NCBI GenBank assembly: GCA_030065755.1
Contig: JASJDA010000048.1
Coordinates: 1-41,758, forward strand
DNA from: Prochloraceae cyanobacterium
GTDB lineage: Bacteria; Cyanobacteriota; Cyanobacteriia; Cyanobacteriales; JASJDA01
Reading direction: 5' to 3'
Length of the DNA stretch: 41,758 nt
Shown here: positions 20,573-27,578 of the stretch, one piece after another
Position numbering within the stretch: position 1 is the first letter of the stretch
Layout of the letters: each line of letters opens with the position of its first letter
Translations under genes and position numbers: made by a program
The notes under the pieces: generated by a model
What the model was told of the DNA's origin: nothing
The model's input: the letters and a program-made list of their open reading frames with translations, nothing else
The model's database searches: none

Positions 20573-21514
20573 TTAAAAATCTAAATCGCAAAACTCTGCT
20601 TTAAGGTCTCTTTCCATTAAAGCTTGAACTGATTCATAAGGAGTAGTTTTACCTTTAAGCAATCGATGAACTTGACGCGCTATTGGTATGGGAATTGTTT
20701 GTTGATTAGCTAAATCGACTAAAACATTAGTAGTGTTAACCCCTTCTGCTGTTCCTTCTAATTGAGATAAAATTTCTTCTAAGGTTTTACCCTGAGCCAG
20801 TCCGTAACCGACTTGATAATTGCGAGAGAGGGGACTGTCGCAGGTGGCTAATAAATCTCCTAAACCCGACAAACCAAAGAAAGTTTCAGTCGCAGCACCT
20901 AGATGAGTGCCAACGCGAATCATTTCTGGTAATGCTCTAGTTAGGAGTGCCGCTTTAGCATTGGTTCCCAGTTGCAAACCGTCACAAACTCCAGCAGCGA
21001 TCGCGATTACGTTTTTGAGAGTCCCGCCTAATTCTGTCCCTAAGGGATCTTCATTGACGTATACTCTAAAAGTATCAGAAGCAAAAATTTCTTGTACTGT
21101 TTCTGCTGCTGACAGATCTTTGCTAGCAACTACTGTCGCTGCAGGTAAGTTTTTTTGTATTTCTTTAGAAAGATTTGGCCCTGAAAGTACCACAATTGGA
21201 TGCTTAGGAAAAGCTTCTTGCCAAATTTGGCAAGGAGTGTGGGTGGTAAGAGGGTCTAATCCTTTTGTGGCACTAACTAGAATTAGATTATCTGGCAAAT
21301 TAATGCGTTGAAGTTTCTCAATAGTTGGTCTGACTCCTTTCATGGAAACAGCAGATAAGACTATATTTGCACCTTCTACTAAAGATTCCATGGTTTGCTG
21401 ACTGCGACGCGACCAAAAACGAACTTCATGCTCATTTCGAGAAGCTAAATTACCTAGCGCTGAACCCCATACTCCTGCTCCTAATATAGTTACGATTTTT
21501 TTACGATTTGTCAC
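20573..21514 (-). CDS. gpsA: Glycerol-3-phosphate dehydrogenase [NAD(P)+]
   Basis: Reduces dihydroxyacetone phosphate to sn-glycerol-3-phosphate for phospholipid synthesis, in the cytoplasm. The 313 residues match the family. The Rossmann motif is GAGVWGSALG (about 12-21); the catalytic lysines are expected in 'SATKGLD' and in the 'AGVCDGLQLGTNAKAALLTR' region; 'FFGLSGLGDLLATC' is also typical. The start is GTG at 21514 with a GAGG site about five bases upstream; the ATG just upstream is out of frame. Its promoter lies close to the right end of the IscB element, which ends about 20-30 bp from this start. Confidence 0.96.
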   Translation of the reverse strand: MTNRKKIVTILGAGVWGSALGNLASRNEHEVRFWSRRSQQTMESLVEGANIVLSAVSMKGVRPTIEKLQRINLPDNLILVSATKGLDPLTTHTPCQIWQEAFPKHPIVVLSGPNLSKEIQKNLPAATVVASKDLSAAETVQEIFASDTFRVYVNEDPLGTELGGTLKNVIAIAAGVCDGLQLGTNAKAALLTRALPEMIRVGTHLGAATETFFGLSGLGDLLATCDSPLSRNYQVGYGLAQGKTLEEILSQLEGTAEGVNTTNVLVDLANQQTIPIPIARQVHRLLKGKTTPYESVQALMERDLKAEFCDLDF

Positions 21515-21529
21515 GAGAACCTCATGGGA

Positions 21530-21595
21530 GAATGGAAGCCTCGCCTATTTATAGCGAGGAGGAAATTCGACACGGGTATTTTAATGCCCGTGAAT
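21530..21595 (-). mobile_element. Right-end hairpins of the IscB element
   Basis: Two hairpins follow the iscB stop on the minus strand. CACGGG (21571-21576) pairs with CCCGTG (21587-21592), and CCTCGC (21539-21544) pairs with GCGAGG (21554-21559), the latter extended by an inner TAT/ATA. Subterminal hairpins of this sort are what TnpA-type single-strand transposases recognise at IS200/IS605-family ends. The exact cleavage point cannot be read without an empty-site sequence. Confidence 0.6.
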
Positions 21596-22876
21596 CTATC
21601 GACTAAAACTATATTGATATCCATCTTTTTGGTGTAAGTGAGTGCAATACTTATGGCTAATACCTCCTACTCTTCCCGAAGCAATACTAATATCAAAATT
21701 TCCCGATTTGCGGACTAAAACTCGACCAATATAAGTTCCTATTTTCTTTCCTTTCGTAACTAATGCTTTGACAATATCCCCTGTTTGAAATCCTTTATGA
21801 ATTTTGATGTTAGAACGGTGGCGAATAGGAAAACCATATTTATTTGTGCCGCACATCTGTCTAGTTCCATGACCGTTTGCCTTAATTTTTAAAGGCTGGT
21901 GAGTTAAGAAAACCAAACTATTTATAATTCCAGTTGCGGCAGCATCAATGTAATGTTTTTTAGGTAAGTTAAATCTACTTCTATTCCATTTTGTTTGACC
22001 TCCTGTTCCTGTTATGGTTGGTAAGATATTTTTTAGTGTTTGATATAACTTCCATCTCGTTGAATTAACTGCTGCAGCATCTTTTAACGGTAGTTTGGCA
22101 ACTTTGAGAATTCGAGATAATAAACTAGGTTTATCCGCTAAAAAATCCCTAATATTTTGGTTAGATTTGGCTTGGTTACAAGGGGCACAAGCTAAAGTTA
22201 AATTAGAAATTCTATTGCTGCCTGACGACGCTCGAGGAATAATATGCTCTATTTGCAAAGGAATTTCCGTTGCGTCGCAATAAGCGCATTTTCTCCCCCA
22301 TTTTTCGAGCAAATATTCTCGGACTTCGTATCCTGCTAACTCGCCTTGCTGATACTCAACACCCTTTATTTCCCCATTCTGCATACGCTGGGTGTCAAAC
22401 CTAACTAGCTCCATAACACAGTTAGAAACAGGACTGTACCGCATTATTTTTTTAACCCAAGTCTTTATAGTTTGAACTCTATGGAGCAGGGAAGGTGCTA
22501 ACCAACTGAGTGCCCGTTTACGGTTGTTAAATCGAGCTTGACGATAACGAGTTTTACGGTTTCTCCTCCCTCTTCGTAATGCTCGACGCGATTCTAGATC
22601 TTCTTTAATTTGTTGACCTCGATGGGATAATTCTGCCACCCAGATAACTTTATCGTTATCTAATATAGCTATGCCAGTAGTCTTTGAACCTGGATCTAAT
22701 TTGATAGTTAGAGGTCGAATTGTTGGCTCGGGGATTACTTTTTTAAGAATTAAAGTAAACGGATAGCGACGAAAAACTGCTGCTTTATTTTGAACTAATA
22801 ATTTTCTAGCTCTAGCTGGAGATATTGGGTTAAGTGGCTTTTTGTTTTGGTCGATTAAAAAAACATAGTTTGGCAT
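21596..22876 (-). CDS. iscB: IscB RNA-guided nuclease, intact
   Basis: Ancestor-type relative of Cas9: a nuclease guided by an omega RNA and encoded in IS200/IS605-like elements. The 426 residues contain an N-terminal PLMP-like domain ('PLNPISPARARKLL', 1-55), RuvC-I (KLDPGSKTTGIA, Asp61), an Arg-rich bridge helix (about 95-121, RRALRRGRRNRKTRYR), RuvC-II (VMELVRFD, Glu156), an HNH domain (Cys197/Cys200, IEHIIPRASSGSN with His211, Cys230/Cys233) and RuvC-III (KKHYIDAAATG, Asp311). The C-terminus ends in HLHQKDGYQYS. All catalytic residues are present. The start has a GGAG about eight bases upstream, and the structured RNA region directly precedes it. No tnpA is in the window, so movement would need one in trans. 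Confidence 0.95.
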   Translation of the reverse strand: MPNYVFLIDQNKKPLNPISPARARKLLVQNKAAVFRRYPFTLILKKVIPEPTIRPLTIKLDPGSKTTGIAILDNDKVIWVAELSHRGQQIKEDLESRRALRRGRRNRKTRYRQARFNNRKRALSWLAPSLLHRVQTIKTWVKKIMRYSPVSNCVMELVRFDTQRMQNGEIKGVEYQQGELAGYEVREYLLEKWGRKCAYCDATEIPLQIEHIIPRASSGSNRISNLTLACAPCNQAKSNQNIRDFLADKPSLLSRILKVAKLPLKDAAAVNSTRWKLYQTLKNILPTITGTGGQTKWNRSRFNLPKKHYIDAAATGIINSLVFLTHQPLKIKANGHGTRQMCGTNKYGFPIRHRSNIKIHKGFQTGDIVKALVTKGKKIGTYIGRVLVRKSGNFDISIASGRVGGISHKYCTHLHQKDGYQYSFSR

Positions 22877-22879
22877 TTC

Positions 22880-23190
22880 TGCGCTCCTATTCTTGCTCCG
22901 TCCTTACGCCGAGGAGACCTCGGCGCGGGCGGTGCGCTTTCTAGGGTAAGGTTGGCCTCGTCAATCTTTAGCCTCGGTACTTTCCTAAAAGCACTTCTTT
23001 AATCTCGATACAGATGTTTAACTTTTAGGTTTTAGAGCCTAGAACTGGCAAGCATTCTAGGGTAAGAACGTTAACTCTTAGGCTAAAGGTAGTTCTAAAA
23101 AAGAACTAAGACTGGTCAAGTATTAGGGGTTTCAAGCCTCCGTTTTTAAAACGTAGGTTGGCTGCCTACGAGATTCTTGACTGATATTTG
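22880..23190 (-). ncRNA. HEARO / omega RNA of the IscB element
   Basis: About 310 bases of non-coding, strongly paired sequence directly upstream of iscB and on its strand, where HEARO (HNH endonuclease-associated RNA and ORF) RNAs lie. Visible stems are: a long-range pair CTTGAC (23176-23181) with GTCAAG (23115-23120); CGTAGG/CCTACG (23152-23157 with 23165-23170); TAGTTCT/AGAACTA (23090-23096 with 23102-23108); CTAGAA/TTCTAG (23039-23044 with 23055-23060); and near the start codon CGCCGAGG/CCTCGGCG (22907-22914 with 22918-22925). The guide of IscB RNAs is the 5' flank, so it should lie just past 23181. The boundaries are approximate. Confidence 0.82.
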
Positions 23191-23275
23191 ATTAAATAAT
23201 GCTTTTAAGTTCTTATGATAATACTATAGGCGATCGCGATTGGCCTAATGCCTCCATCTTGAGTTTATTCTATTT

Positions 23276-25723
23276 GTGAACGAACAACAGCTACAAACCT
23301 ACCTCAACCTCATCCCAGAATTGCTAAACTGCGCTGATGATAAAGCAAAATTGCAGCAATTCGTTATTGATAACCAAGAATTATTAGATGAAAATTTCGC
23401 AGAGATATTTTATCAAAAGACGATCGCTGTTTTGTCCAATGTAGAATCAGAACAAGCCTATGGGTTAGCTGGATTTATTGGCAACTTAAGCATACAGTTT
23501 TATCAGCTTCCTCGCGGTAATAGGAAGAATAATTTAGAGATTGCTATTAAAGGTTTTCAAGCTATTGTTTCTGTTTTTACTTTTGAAGCATTTCCCATAG
23601 ATTGGGCAAGTACCCAAAATAACCTGGGGATTGCTTACGCAGATAGAATCAAAGGAGAGAAGGCAGATAATTTAGAAGCGGCGATCGACTGTTTTCGAGA
23701 GTCGTTGAAAGTTATTACCCGCGACGCATTTCCCATAGAATGGGCAAGAACCCAAAATAACCTGGGTACTGCTTACACAAATAGAATCAAAGGAGAGAAG
23801 GCAGATAATTTAGAAGCGGCGATCGACTGTTATCGAGAGTCGTTGAAAGTTCTTACCCGCGACGCTTTTCCCATAGATTGGGCAAGAACCCAAAATAACC
23901 TGGGTACTGCTTACAGAAATAGAATCAAAGGAGAGAAGGCAGATAATTTAGAAGCGGCGATCTACTGTTATCGAGAGTCGTTGAAAGTTCATACCCGCGA
24001 CGCTTTTCCTATAGAATGTCTGCAAACTGGAGGCAACTTAGGCAAGATTGCCTTTGAAGAAGGAAATTGGCAACTTGCGATCGATGCTTACAAAAACGCC
24101 ATTGAAGCAGTGGAAATTAGCCGTAGTTGGGCTATGACACTCCAAAGTAAAAAGGATGTCATGGAAACAGCCATTAATGTTTACTACAAGATAGTCCTAG
24201 CATATCTAAACACAAAACAAACTCTTCAGGCTTTAGAATATGCGGAACGCAGTAAAGCCCGCAATCTTGTCGAATTAATAACTAGCCGCGATCTTAAACC
24301 TAAAGGAGATTTTTCTCCTGACATTCTGACAGAATTGAAGCGCTTGCGTAATAGAATTCGCAACGAAAAAATACGTTTAGCCAACGAAGAGACAAAATAC
24401 AATTACAATGCTACATCGGAATCCGATCGTTCTTCTCAAACTTCTCCAGTCGATCGAACCCATCTCAGGCAATTACAACAAGAATTAGATGAATTCATTC
24501 AGCGTCATATCTCGCCGATCGATCCTAGTTTTACTCTGACGCAAAAAATCGAATCCATTACCTCTAGTGAGATCGAATCTCTCATCGACGATCGAACTGC
24601 GATTGTAGAGTGGTACATCACTGGAGACGAGATTATAGCTTTTATCATAACTTCAGGGGACGATGGAAAAATTATACCTTGGCGATCGTCCAGTAGCGAT
24701 CGGACCAATTTAGGGAATTGGGTTAACGAATATCTTGAAACTTACTATTCAAACTTCCAGGAGTGGAAAAGCGAATTAACAAATCGCTTGAAAAATCTAG
24801 GGTCAATTCTCCATCTAGACGAAATTATCTCTCTTCTACCCAAAAAATGCGACAGTTTAATTCTCATTCCCCATCGATTTTTACATTTATTACCCCTTCA
24901 CGCTGTCTCTGTGAGAAGGGAAAATTCTGAGAATGCAAAATCTCTTCTCGAATTATTCCCCAGAGGAGTAAAATATGCTCCAAGCTGTCAATTACTAAAA
25001 CTCTCCCAAACTCAAAAAGGTCAACAGTTGCAAAACTTGTTTGCGATCCAAGATCCTGAAGACAATTTAATTTTCACTAATATAGAAGTCGAAAAGATTG
25101 CATCTTTATTCCCTAATCCCTCAATTTTGGCAAAACAAGCAGCAACTAAAGACGCTATCAAAAATTATCCCAACTTCTCATCAGTACATTGCTGTCATTT
25201 TTCCTGTCATGGTAAATTTAACCTAAAATCTCCTTTAGAATCTGCCTTAATTTTGGCAAATGGAGAAAACTGGACATTAGGAGAAATCTTTGAACTCTAT
25301 TTACCTCAATGTCATCTCGTCACCCTTTCTGCTTGTGAAACTGGTTCGATCGATTTTACTAGCTTCAGCGATGAATATATTGGTTTAGCTAGCGGTTTTA
25401 TTTATGCAGGTAGTCCAAATGTGGTTAGTAGCTTGTGGAATGTTGAGGATTTATCTACCAGTTTTTTAACGATCGCATTTTATCAAAATCTCCCCAGTTG
25501 TAATAATAATGTCGCGATCGCCCTCAATAAAGCCCAACTTTGGTTAAGAGACATTACTAAAACTGAATTAGTAGAATGGATAGAGATAAATAAAATACCT
25601 TTAGACAAACTAGACCCAACACAGAGAAGCTTTTTCGATCGAATTTTGTATAAAATGCAGGATAGCGATCGACCTTTTGAAAATCCTTATTATTGGGCTG
25701 CTTTCTGCGCGATCGGCAAATAG
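23276..25723 (+). CDS. TPR-CHAT (caspase-like) protease
   Basis: An 815-residue protein with a helical N-terminal region (1-104), three near-identical 46-residue TPR-like repeats (105-242, each with 'TQNNLGTAY.NRIKGEKADN'), a further TPR-like helical part to about 340, a linker and a C-terminal CHAT domain. The caspase-type dyad is His645 (HFSCHG) and Cys687 (LSACETG), followed by the family's 'GSPNVVSSLWNVEDLSTSFL'. CHAT proteases cleave partner proteins; TPR-CHAT forms include Craspase and the proteases of bacterial gasdermin loci. Start GTG at 23276. It is followed after 11 bp by a small protein and then by a membrane protein, so it is probably the sensor-protease of a module. The upstream neighbour is the IscB omega RNA. 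Confidence 0.93.
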   Translation: MNEQQLQTYLNLIPELLNCADDKAKLQQFVIDNQELLDENFAEIFYQKTIAVLSNVESEQAYGLAGFIGNLSIQFYQLPRGNRKNNLEIAIKGFQAIVSVFTFEAFPIDWASTQNNLGIAYADRIKGEKADNLEAAIDCFRESLKVITRDAFPIEWARTQNNLGTAYTNRIKGEKADNLEAAIDCYRESLKVLTRDAFPIDWARTQNNLGTAYRNRIKGEKADNLEAAIYCYRESLKVHTRDAFPIECLQTGGNLGKIAFEEGNWQLAIDAYKNAIEAVEISRSWAMTLQSKKDVMETAINVYYKIVLAYLNTKQTLQALEYAERSKARNLVELITSRDLKPKGDFSPDILTELKRLRNRIRNEKIRLANEETKYNYNATSESDRSSQTSPVDRTHLRQLQQELDEFIQRHISPIDPSFTLTQKIESITSSEIESLIDDRTAIVEWYITGDEIIAFIITSGDDGKIIPWRSSSSDRTNLGNWVNEYLETYYSNFQEWKSELTNRLKNLGSILHLDEIISLLPKKCDSLILIPHRFLHLLPLHAVSVRRENSENAKSLLELFPRGVKYAPSCQLLKLSQTQKGQQLQNLFAIQDPEDNLIFTNIEVEKIASLFPNPSILAKQAATKDAIKNYPNFSSVHCCHFSCHGKFNLKSPLESALILANGENWTLGEIFELYLPQCHLVTLSACETGSIDFTSFSDEYIGLASGFIYAGSPNVVSSLWNVEDLSTSFLTIAFYQNLPSCNNNVAIALNKAQLWLRDITKTELVEWIEINKIPLDKLDPTQRSFFDRILYKMQDSDRPFENPYYWAAFCAIGK
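23588..24001 (+). repeat. Three 138-bp tandem repeats inside the CHAT gene
   Basis: Units start at 23588, 23726 and 23864, exactly 138 bp (46 codons) apart, with a fourth partial start at 24002. They are nearly identical at the DNA level, including silent positions, which points to recent expansion or ongoing homogenisation rather than old TPR divergence. Confidence 0.9.
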
Positions 25724-25734
25724 GAGGACAAAAA

Positions 25735-26076
25735 ATGTCAGATCACAAAAAAAATATTCTCGATTTTATCGAAGTTTTGGAAAACCAACCTAGTTTATTA
25801 ACTCCCGACGATAGTTTAGACTTACAAAAATTACTCAAAACCTTACCAGACGACATTAAGGAATTCTCGAATCAAATTACATCTTGGTATTACCAACGTC
25901 AGACTATTAAAAATGCTATTTTTGCACTTCCAGAGGATCCTACTGAAAGAAATCCTAGAAAACGTAAATCAAACATCACTACTGAAGAAGCGAAAGAATT
26001 AATTGAAAATGTTGTTCGTCAAAGTAAAAAATCTTCTGAATCTTCTCAAACTTCTGACCGTCAACCTCAACAATGA
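25735..26076 (+). CDS. Small charged protein of the CHAT locus, unknown family
   Basis: 113 residues from ATG 25735, with a TAGGAGGA ribosome site that overlaps the CHAT stop codon. An in-frame upstream start would lie inside the CHAT gene and lacks such a site. The N-terminal 60 residues look helical (ILDFIEVLENQPSLL, then LQKLLKTLPDDIKEF). A basic segment follows (RNPRKRKS), and the end is a low-complexity Ser/Gln-rich tail. No family is recognised. It sits 11 bp after the CHAT gene and overlaps the membrane protein gene by 4 bp (ATGA), so the three are surely one operon. It could be an adaptor, inhibitor or cleavage substrate of the CHAT protease; this is inference. Confidence 0.8.
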   Translation: MSDHKKNILDFIEVLENQPSLLTPDDSLDLQKLLKTLPDDIKEFSNQITSWYYQRQTIKNAIFALPEDPTERNPRKRKSNITTEEAKELIENVVRQSKKSSESSQTSDRQPQQ

Positions 26077-27578
26077 CCCAAGATTCCGAAATATCAGAAC
26101 TAAAAAATACGAGTCTTACACTCTATGCTTTCTATTTGCGGAATAGCATCGATCGAGGTTTTGAGAATACTGTTCCTGAAGCGTCCAGAATTTGGGAAAA
26201 AATTACCGATTTAGGAAATACTCGTCATATCTCTGAACTACAAAATCTTTATTCAAAACTTATCTGCTACGAAACTAACCAATATCATCCCGAAATAGAA
26301 GACAGACAACTAACAGATTATTTTCCTCTTCTAAAAAATCCCGACGAAAGTTTAGATTTTTCACTTTTATCCGAACCTGAATTAGAAATCAGAGCAACAC
26401 TTTCCCCTTATCGCTACCACGACAGCTATTTAATCGATCTCAATCTTTATTCTGAAAATAGCATTAATCCCACTCAATTAAAAAAATTCAATTCTCAATA
26501 TCAACTCTTTTCACCACTTCTGGAAAATTATCTCGGTAAAACTCTTTTCTTCTACGCTGAAGTAAGCAATTCTCAAAGCGATTATTCCGATCTAGCTAAA
26601 ACTTGCGCGAGTCAATTATTTGACGTTGAAAAAGAATCAATTAAATTAGTATCCGATCGTCTTTTTAACTGTCCGCTTTTTATTTACGATAACGGAGAAA
26701 CAAACACCCACAAACAACAACATTTAATTATTTGGGTTAACGATCGTTCTATCGAATATTTTGAGAAACAAGATAAATTTTATGAATGGTTGAGTTATCT
26801 TATTTGTAGTCGTCACAAAATCCTTTACGCTTACGATCGATCTCGTTCCCGTTATAACGACGCAAAACCATATTACGAAAAAATAGAACAAAATATTAAC
26901 AAATTCAGTGAAAATGTTCGAGCTAGCGATCGGCTAGAAAAATTCAAAGAATTACTCAGAGAATTACCCGAACTTTCTCTAAAATACGGTCAACTAGTCA
27001 GGGAAATAGAAGATCACAAAAACACTATTAAAACTAATCTCCAAAACTATCAAAGATCGAACACCGAACTAAAAGAATTACCCGATAGCAATATAACTTT
27101 TTCAGAGGATTTTTTAACCCTAATAAATAATAAATTTATCCCCCAAATTGAAGCAGATTTAAGCTTTTTAACCCCAATAAAAAGCCTGTTTCAAGAACTA
27201 CTAAATAACATTCGTAGTATAGTACAAATAGACCAAATAGAAAGCGATCGTCAACTTCAAGAACAATTACGAATAGAGGCAGAAAAAAGTGAAGAAAGAG
27301 CAAACACAATAGAAGGGTGGATTGCCTTTTTTGGTACGGGTTTAGCTGTTAGTGGAGTATCAGCAGGAGTTGTTTCTGACCCCAGTCAAACCATTGTCAA
27401 AACTCTAAATATCAATGCTCCTTCCTTTTGTCAAAGTGATGAGTTAGCACAATTCTTATGCACTAATTCTTTTGATGTTGTATTTCATCTTATTGTTGGT
27501 CTTATTGTTGCTATTCCCGCAGCTATTTTTATTCGTTTAATCCCCAGGGAACAGGGAACGGGGAACAGGGAACAGTAA
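26073..27578 (+). CDS. Coiled-coil protein with two C-terminal membrane helices, CHAT locus
   Basis: A 501-residue protein of no family I can name with certainty. The N-terminal 250 residues look alpha/beta and rich in Tyr and Phe. Residues about 270-410 are strongly helical and partly coiled coil (EKFKELLRELPELSLKYGQL; EQLRIEAEKSEERAN). Two hydrophobic helices follow, about 415-435 and 467-489, with a short Cys-containing loop between. This resembles a membrane effector kept off by its soluble part and could be the target of the CHAT protease. The start ATG overlaps the previous stop (ATGA). The last residues, REQGTGNREQ, and the stop are encoded by a GGGAACA repeat (27545-27576), so the natural C-terminus may have been replaced. 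Confidence 0.85.
   Translation: MTQDSEISELKNTSLTLYAFYLRNSIDRGFENTVPEASRIWEKITDLGNTRHISELQNLYSKLICYETNQYHPEIEDRQLTDYFPLLKNPDESLDFSLLSEPELEIRATLSPYRYHDSYLIDLNLYSENSINPTQLKKFNSQYQLFSPLLENYLGKTLFFYAEVSNSQSDYSDLAKTCASQLFDVEKESIKLVSDRLFNCPLFIYDNGETNTHKQQHLIIWVNDRSIEYFEKQDKFYEWLSYLICSRHKILYAYDRSRSRYNDAKPYYEKIEQNINKFSENVRASDRLEKFKELLRELPELSLKYGQLVREIEDHKNTIKTNLQNYQRSNTELKELPDSNITFSEDFLTLINNKFIPQIEADLSFLTPIKSLFQELLNNIRSIVQIDQIESDRQLQEQLRIEAEKSEERANTIEGWIAFFGTGLAVSGVSAGVVSDPSQTIVKTLNINAPSFCQSDELAQFLCTNSFDVVFHLIVGLIVAIPAAIFIRLIPREQGTGNREQ
27545..27576. repeat. GGGAACA-type repeat at the end of the membrane protein gene
   Basis: Tandem GGGAACA/GGGAACG units that supply the last codons of the 501-residue protein. 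The same unit type forms the foldback at 37569-37713. Confidence 0.8.

What the first reader, a model, noticed from the sequence alone, without database searches (positions are those of the whole stretch)
21530..23200. Complete IscB nuclease with upstream HEARO/omega RNA and readable guide position
All RuvC and HNH residues of IscB are present. The 300 bases upstream form at least five perfect stems with the outer pair 23176-23181/23115-23120. Known: the IscB guide is the sequence flanking the 5' end of the omega RNA, so it should lie just past 23181 (about 23182-23200, minus strand). Inference: an active RNA-guided nuclease whose guide now derives from the promoter region of the CHAT operon.
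Basis: partly seen in the sequence, partly recalled or inferred. Interest (0 to 1): 0.75.

Follow-up and report, generated by a model that had tools for sequence, protein, structure and literature searches.

The report
IscB element at a gene's start codon
A small mobile DNA element carrying an RNA-guided DNA-cutting enzyme (of the family from which Cas9 arose) sits exactly in front of the start codon of a host metabolic gene and brings its own ribosome-docking-like sequence, a habit shared by many of its relatives that may let such elements land in front of genes without silencing them.

Summary
Compared with sister elements, the element spans 21515-23181 (1667 bp). No other site in the 8.46-Mb assembly matches guide plus NTGA within one mismatch; the occupied site has GTCA after the guide, not NTGA.

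Wider result: among 60 cyanobacterial IscB elements with right ends called by eye, 22 of 32 inserted before ATGA open a gene-like frame there (control: 16% of intergenic-like ATGA sites). GTGA, the window's class, shows no significant excess (5 of 25 against 11%). 50 of 60 right ends carry a Shine-Dalgarno-like stretch. In five Burkholderiales elements the target completes or supplies the iscB stop codon. Cleavage, transcription and transposition were not tested, and the founding papers were not available.

The parts
21515..23181 (-). whole IscB/HEARO element (1667 bp)
   Evidence: left end = HEARO model position 1; right end by comparison with sister elements, 53 of 62 called ends supported by pairwise alignment ends, the window's among them
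22946..23181 (-). HEARO / omega RNA scaffold
   Evidence: Rfam RF02033, 120.2 bits, model 1-211 of 211
21596..22876 (-). iscB, 426 aa, HNH and RuvC residues present
23182..23198 (-). guide source: host flank just 5' of the omega RNA (about 17 nt), the former gpsA leader
   Evidence: position; guide length of about 17 nt from passages of PMC9640706
21511..21514 (-). GTGA: flanking target / presumed TAM, and first bases of gpsA (start codon GTG)
21519..21523 (-). GAGGT, Shine-Dalgarno-like, 4 nt before the gpsA GTG, inside the element
21539..21559 (-). subterminal hairpin near the right end (CCTCGC ... GCGAGG)
   Evidence: read from the sequence; not tested
21571..21592 (-). hairpin after the iscB stop (CACGGG ... 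CCCGTG); not scored as a terminator
   Evidence: read from the sequence; no minus-strand terminator listed
20573..21514 (-). gpsA, NAD(P)H-dependent glycerol-3-phosphate dehydrogenase, host gene downstream of the element
   Evidence: NF011212, 533 bits, residues 2-308; one match in the own genome

Best explanation
It is an IscB (OMEGA) transposable element without a transposase gene of its own, inserted exactly before the GTGA start codon of gpsA. Shown by sequence comparison: the element ends, the guide position, the flanking RTGA, and the absence of NTGA after the guide in the occupied site. Inferred: the promoter of gpsA, left upstream of the insertion, transcribes guide, omega RNA, iscB and gpsA together, because the guide lies outside the element at the 5' end and so needs a promoter in host DNA. 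Inferred: GAGGT at the element's right end replaces the ribosome-binding region of gpsA, so gpsA stays translated. Inferred from what is known of OMEGA nucleases (recalled): IscB with this guide cuts the element-free gpsA allele (guide followed by GTGA) and so favours keeping or re-copying the element. Relatives share the anatomy: landing on ATGA start codons is enriched and right ends carry Shine-Dalgarno-like stretches.
For: Protein and RNA. Right end: the last 18 bases equal those of L092 but for one, both followed by GTGA; 53 of 62 called ends supported by alignment ends. The rejoined site has no ATG, GTG or TTG in the 14 codons between the upstream in-frame stop and the GTG, and gpsA fits its family model from residue 2. 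IsrB relatives use NTGA or NTG as TAM (passages of PMC9581776). 0 of 59 elements have NTGA after the guide, 51 have GTCA. Empty sites at two sister insertions. ATGA landing at gene starts 22 of 32 against 110 of 688 control sites. Shine-Dalgarno-like stretch of at least 5 nt in 41 of 60 right ends, letter shuffles mean 4.1, highest 12 in 2000.
Against: For GTGA, the class of this window, gene-start landing is not significantly enriched (5 of 25 against 52 of 456, p 0.15). 31 of 60 elements are not at a gene start. Right ends were called by eye and 41 of 103 IscB loci had none called. The Shine-Dalgarno-like stretch could be a transposase site: 22 of the 50 elements that carry it are not at gene starts; within the ATGA class it is uninformative (21 and 9 with it, 1 and 1 without) and within the rest only suggestive (p 0.075). 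No sigma-70-like promoter was found on the minus strand of 21400-23400. No empty site of the gpsA insertion was found. In L158 an in-frame ATG lies seven codons before the junction in the empty site, so 'exact start codon' can be off by a few codons.
Confidence: 0.58

Rival explanations
1. Ordinary IscB element. Gene-start landing follows from an RTGA target preference plus loss of insertions that break genes, and the GAGG core of the right end is a transposase recognition sequence without a role in translation.
For: GTGA class not enriched at gene starts; 22 of 50 elements with the stretch are not at gene starts; 24 of the 30 members of the largest right-end cluster share the stretch by descent.
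Against: ATGA sites are compared with intergenic-like ATGA sites, not with all sites (22 of 32 against 16%). The stretch recurs in right ends of different sequence: 18 of 19 right-end clusters have a member with it. In Burkholderiales the iscB stop codon itself depends on the target.
Confidence: 0.28
2. A resident, no longer mobile IscB kept for a host function at the gpsA/CHAT intergenic region.
For: Its nearest IscB relative in the same genome is 67% identical; its omega RNA 5' part departs from the GTCAGCACCCCGCACT-like start of most other copies; no transposase in cis.
Against: Both ends and flanks look like those of mobile sister elements. No second target within one mismatch in its genome; 11 sites within 3 mismatches, its own occupied site among them, against 14 for the reversed control pattern. 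No relative with the element at this place was seen among the 13 other gpsA loci printed.
Confidence: 0.06
3. A decayed copy: reading frame and RNA fold intact, but no longer transcribed or able to cut.
For: The HEARO score (120 bits) is the lowest but one of the 14 over the cut-off in this genome; no promoter found by the simple scan.
Against: Full-length frame, catalytic positions present, covariance model matched end to end.
Confidence: 0.08

Closest known systems
IscB / HEARO (OMEGA) nucleases, e.g. OgeuIscB (passages of PMC9640706) and HEARO nuclease MG35-1 (passages of PMC9755519)
   Same: domain order, catalytic residues, omega RNA directly upstream of iscB, guide at the 5' end of the RNA, motif 3' of the target
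   Different: OgeuIscB reads NNRR as TAM, here the flank is GTGA; position at a gene start and a Shine-Dalgarno-like right end are not mentioned in the passages I saw
IsrB nickases with NTGA or NTG TAM (passages of PMC9581776)
   Same: RRXRR-type protein, omega RNA, TGA-containing TAM as in the flanks here
   Different: IsrB lacks the HNH domain, which is present here
TnpB elements of the IS200/IS605 family (recalled)
   Same: guide taken from host flank, motif on the other flank, retention by cutting the empty site (recalled)
   Different: in TnpB the guide is at the 3' end of the RNA, so a promoter inside the element suffices; here the guide is 5' and a host promoter must lie outside (inference); no tnpA in this element

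Membership tests
IscB nuclease | RuvC and HNH domains with catalytic residues, PLMP-type N-terminus | tested here: met
   residue names from passages of PMC9640706
IscB nuclease | RNA-guided cleavage of DNA next to a TAM | not testable with these tools
   needs biochemistry
HEARO / omega RNA (RF02033) | covariance-model match over the gathering score, directly upstream of the ORF | tested here: met
   120.2 against 83 bits, model 1-211
HEARO element | inserted immediately 5' of ATGA or GTGA (recalled) | tested here: met
   GTGA at 21514-21511; same flank class in 57 of 60 elements, the others being 2 GTGG and 1 GTAA; the ends were called by eye with this motif in mind
mobile element | empty site in a related genome | tested here: inconclusive
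   not found for the window; found for sister insertions L158 and L168
IS200/IS605 transposon | tnpA (Y1 transposase) in the element | tested here: not met
   in 21515-23181 one search lists no ORF of 80 aa or more besides iscB; 16 Y1_Tnp matches in the genome, none on contig C369

The most novel reading that the evidence does not exclude
IscB/HEARO transposons are start-codon specialists. One tetranucleotide, RTGA, is at once transposon target, TAM of the nuclease and start codon of a host gene. The right end supplies the ribosome-binding site, or lets the target complete the iscB stop codon so that iscB and the host gene overlap by one or four bases. The host promoter left outside transcribes the guide. 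Insertion is thereby tolerated even at single-copy genes and gives each new copy a transcribed guide.
Probability: 0.55. Interest if true: 0.78.

Novelty: new member of a known kind. Interest (0 to 1): 0.52.

Why it matters
The omega RNA of IscB needs a promoter outside its own element, because its guide is host flank at the 5' end. How each new copy gets transcribed, and how such elements persist beside single-copy genes such as gpsA, I did not find answered in the papers I could search. Landing at start codons with a portable ribosome-binding site would answer both and can be tested with reporters and RNA-seq. It would also tie the TAM of a Cas9 ancestor (RTGA) to gene starts.

Tried and rejected
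Empty site at gpsA: upstream sequence was printed for 14 of the 30 gpsA loci, the window's own among them. In the other 13 I recognised by eye neither a CHAT-like ORF among the one or two longest upstream ORFs printed nor a leader like the window's; no alignment was made. The only same-genus genome has gpsA at 75% protein identity.

Second genomic target of the guide: none within one mismatch. A CHAT-targeting role: set aside, since the flanking GTGA belongs to gpsA. Terminator between iscB and gpsA: none listed on the minus strand. Promoter in the flank: none on the minus strand by the sigma-70 scan, which does not exclude one.

Start-codon cases that do not hold: L217 starts at profile position 192 of P450, an interrupted gene; the L158 gene has an in-frame ATG seven codons before the junction. 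Both were removed in the stricter count. L153 has a Pfam family from near its start but was not counted because its frame stays open 134 codons upstream. L085 and L108 had uncertain right ends and were left out. L096 and L102 were dropped as repeats. In all, 41 of 103 IscB loci had no right end called (cut by contig ends, degenerate, or other kinds of ends).

A third empty-site test (L169): of 2 other genomes, one (G422) matches query 119-299, through the junction at 150, and one (G423) matches the right half only. The inserts at the L168 site in G359, G417, G418 and G419 gave no Rfam match up to E 0.01, and the 196-bp insert of G418 no BLAST match among my loci.

Papers: searches list at most 20 papers each; in their titles and abstract starts I saw nothing on start codons or ribosome-binding sites of IscB/HEARO elements. 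Passages only: PMC9581776, PMC9755519, PMC13180657, PMC9640706. PMC2864571 was searched for HEARO, no occurrence. Four papers asked for by id (an IscB/IS200-IS605 study, an ISC transposon study, a HEARO RNA study and a transposon-retention study, by recall) are not held, so novelty is not established.

Full report
What is there. The minus strand carries an IscB ORF at 21596-22876, 426 aa, with Pfam RRXRR and HNH matches and the NCBIfam model guided_IscB at 444 bits. Catalytic positions D61, E156, H211, H308 and D311 fall in the motifs aligned with solved IscB chains and correspond to D61, E193, H247, H340 and D343 of OgeuIscB (passages of PMC9640706). A HEARO RNA matches at 22946-23181, 120.2 bits, full model.

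Ends. The genome (8.46 Mb, 455 contigs) has 21 HEARO matches, 14 over the cut-off, and 7 near-full-length IscB matches, one with a stop inside. Right ends of sister elements share a block that ends just before an RTGA. In the window that block ends at 21515 and is followed by GTGA, the first bases of gpsA. A Xenococcaceae element (L092) has the same last 18 bases but for one, again followed by GTGA. Among 256 pairwise alignments of right ends, 53 of 62 called ends are supported by at least one pair ending in register within -3 to +8 of the call.

Target and guide. HEARO position 1 is 23181, so the guide is about 23182-23198 on the minus strand. The rejoined site reads ...AATCAAATATCA|GTGACAAATCG. 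The 14 codons between the upstream in-frame stop and this GTG hold no ATG, GTG or TTG, and gpsA matches its full-length family model from residue 2. IsrB nucleases use NTGA or NTG as TAM (passages of PMC9581776), which fits GTGA; OgeuIscB uses NNRR. In the occupied site the guide is followed by GTCA. Among 59 elements none has NTGA there; 51 have GTCA, 6 GTAA, 1 GCCT, 1 GCTA. That is the expected self-protection. The assembly has no other guide+NTGA site within one mismatch; 11 sites within 3 mismatches, its own occupied site among them, against 14 for the reversed control pattern.

Empty sites. For the gpsA site none was found. L158: the joined flanks match without interruption in 3 of 6 other genomes of the genus; in G038 at 93% over all 300 nt and identical across the junction, in G411 at 85%, in G413 at 82% with a 12-nt gap at the junction; the other 3 match the right half only. 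L168: uninterrupted in 11 of 15 other genomes of its genus, the ATGA start conserved in all 8 that I aligned, with small indels in the leader. L169: one of 2 other genomes matches through the junction, over 119-299 only. In L158 an in-frame ATG lies seven codons before the junction, so the native start may lie a little upstream.

Start-codon landing. I looked at 110 loci, 103 with an IscB match. Right ends could be called by eye in 62, 60 of them distinct sites. Twenty-nine of 60 open an ORF of at least 80 codons exactly at the flank: ATGA 22 of 32, GTGA 5 of 25, GTGG 2 of 2, GTAA 0 of 1. In 335,869 bases of flanking DNA the same test is passed by 110 of 688 intergenic-like ATGA sites and 52 of 456 GTGA sites (all sites: 146 of 2040 and 72 of 1533). 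The ATGA excess is p 4e-11, or 5e-8 (17 of 27) with alignment-supported ends only and two doubtful cases removed. These values treat insertions as independent, and the ends were called by hand. The GTGA excess is not significant (p 0.15), and the window belongs to this class. Of the 30 ORFs of at least 80 codons (the 29 plus L153), 25 have Pfam families, among them glgC-, glutaredoxin-, peroxidase-, LptF/LptG-, RadC-, TsaE-, HolA- and PurK-type proteins; one, L217, is the inner part of a P450. gpsA itself has one match in the window's genome.

Ribosome-binding-like sequence. At least 4 nt of the Shine-Dalgarno sequence lie 3-12 nt before the flank in 50 of 60 right ends, against 17 of 59 left flanks. 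At least 5 nt occur in 41 of 60, where letter shuffles give 4.1 on average and at most 12 in 2000. Of 9 distinct Moorena elements 8 have at least 5 nt, such as AAGGAGGT or GGAGG before ATGA. The stretch occurs in at least one member of 18 of 19 right-end clusters, the largest of which holds 30 elements. Of the ten elements that lack it one is at a gene start, of the fifty with it 28 (Fisher p 0.013); within classes the association is not significant. The window has GAGGT, 4 nt before GTG.

Elements without iscB. In this genome five HEARO-only elements end at ATGA of ORFs of 90-263 codons; four of these have Pfam families (TatA, pyridoxamine oxidase, ABC2 membrane, polyketide cyclase), one has none. 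One of the five (L211) lacks the Shine-Dalgarno-like stretch by eye. In a sixth, on contig C296, the right end was unclear.

Other phyla. The plasmid collection has 73 records with a match; I fetched 20 regions. Fifteen are from non-cyanobacterial hosts: 7 of 15 open an ORF of at least 80 codons exactly at the flank (ATGA 7 of 12, GTGA 0 of 3; ends called by eye; upstream frame checked for 3 of the 7). In 6 of the 7 the record lists a gene starting at that base; in the seventh no feature is listed in the stretch. Of the five cyanobacterial plasmid regions, one (L241) ends at an annotated ATGA start, three do not, and in one (L242) no right end was called. In four Burkholderiales elements (L231, L236, L237, L244) the iscB frame runs to the very end of the element and its TGA stop is made of the element's last TG and the target's A; in three of these the records list iscB and the next gene overlapping by one base. 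In L243 the stop is the TGA of the target ATGA.

Mechanism. Shown: anatomy and the ATGA enrichment. Inferred: the guide, being host DNA at the 5' end of the RNA, needs a host promoter; insertion between a promoter and its start codon supplies it, and the element returns a ribosome-binding site to the gene. Cutting of the empty allele for retention is carried over from what is known of OMEGA nucleases (recalled). The sigma-70 scan found no promoter-like site on the minus strand of 21400-23400, which is a point against or a limit of the scan. No transposase lies in the element; what moves it is unknown.

Verdict. By protein and RNA this is an ordinary member of the IscB family. Its position and right end illustrate a family habit that my searches did not find described; the founding papers were not available.

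Noticed in passing
L231, L236, L237, L243, L244 (plasmids of Cupriavidus and Polaromonas): iscB reads to the very end of the element and its stop codon is completed (TG|A) or supplied (ATGA) by the target; in three records iscB and the next gene overlap by one base.
   Followed up: partly
L267, 281-476 (G418): A different 196-bp insert starting with GTCA sits at the same ATGA start codon that carries the IscB element L168 in G314; its right end resembles HEARO-type ends by eye, but it has no Rfam or local BLAST match.
   Followed up: partly
L264, L265 (G359, G419): Inserts of roughly 450 bp in the leader of the same gene, of another kind (by eye perhaps a TnpB-type mini-element); no Rfam match.
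   Followed up: no
L157, right end: The right end is duplicated in tandem, the second copy again followed by GTGA.
   Followed up: no
L215, L210, L217, L218, L214 (own genome): A palindromic stretch of about 100 bp ending in GACTTCCCTAAT, like a miniature transposon, lies inside or near the right ends of several IscB and HEARO-only elements.
   Followed up: no
L213 and L217 (own genome): L217 interrupts a P450 gene and its iscB has one stop inside; L213 has no gene start at its right end.
   Followed up: partly
L228 (Deinococcus plasmid): The IscB element lies between parA and parB, with parB annotated as starting exactly at the ATGA flank.
   Followed up: yes
window 23276-27578 (+): TPR-CHAT protein (weak match to type III-E Csx29, 75 bits, cut-off 300) followed by two ORFs without Pfam families, one of 127 and one of 501 aa.
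   Followed up: no
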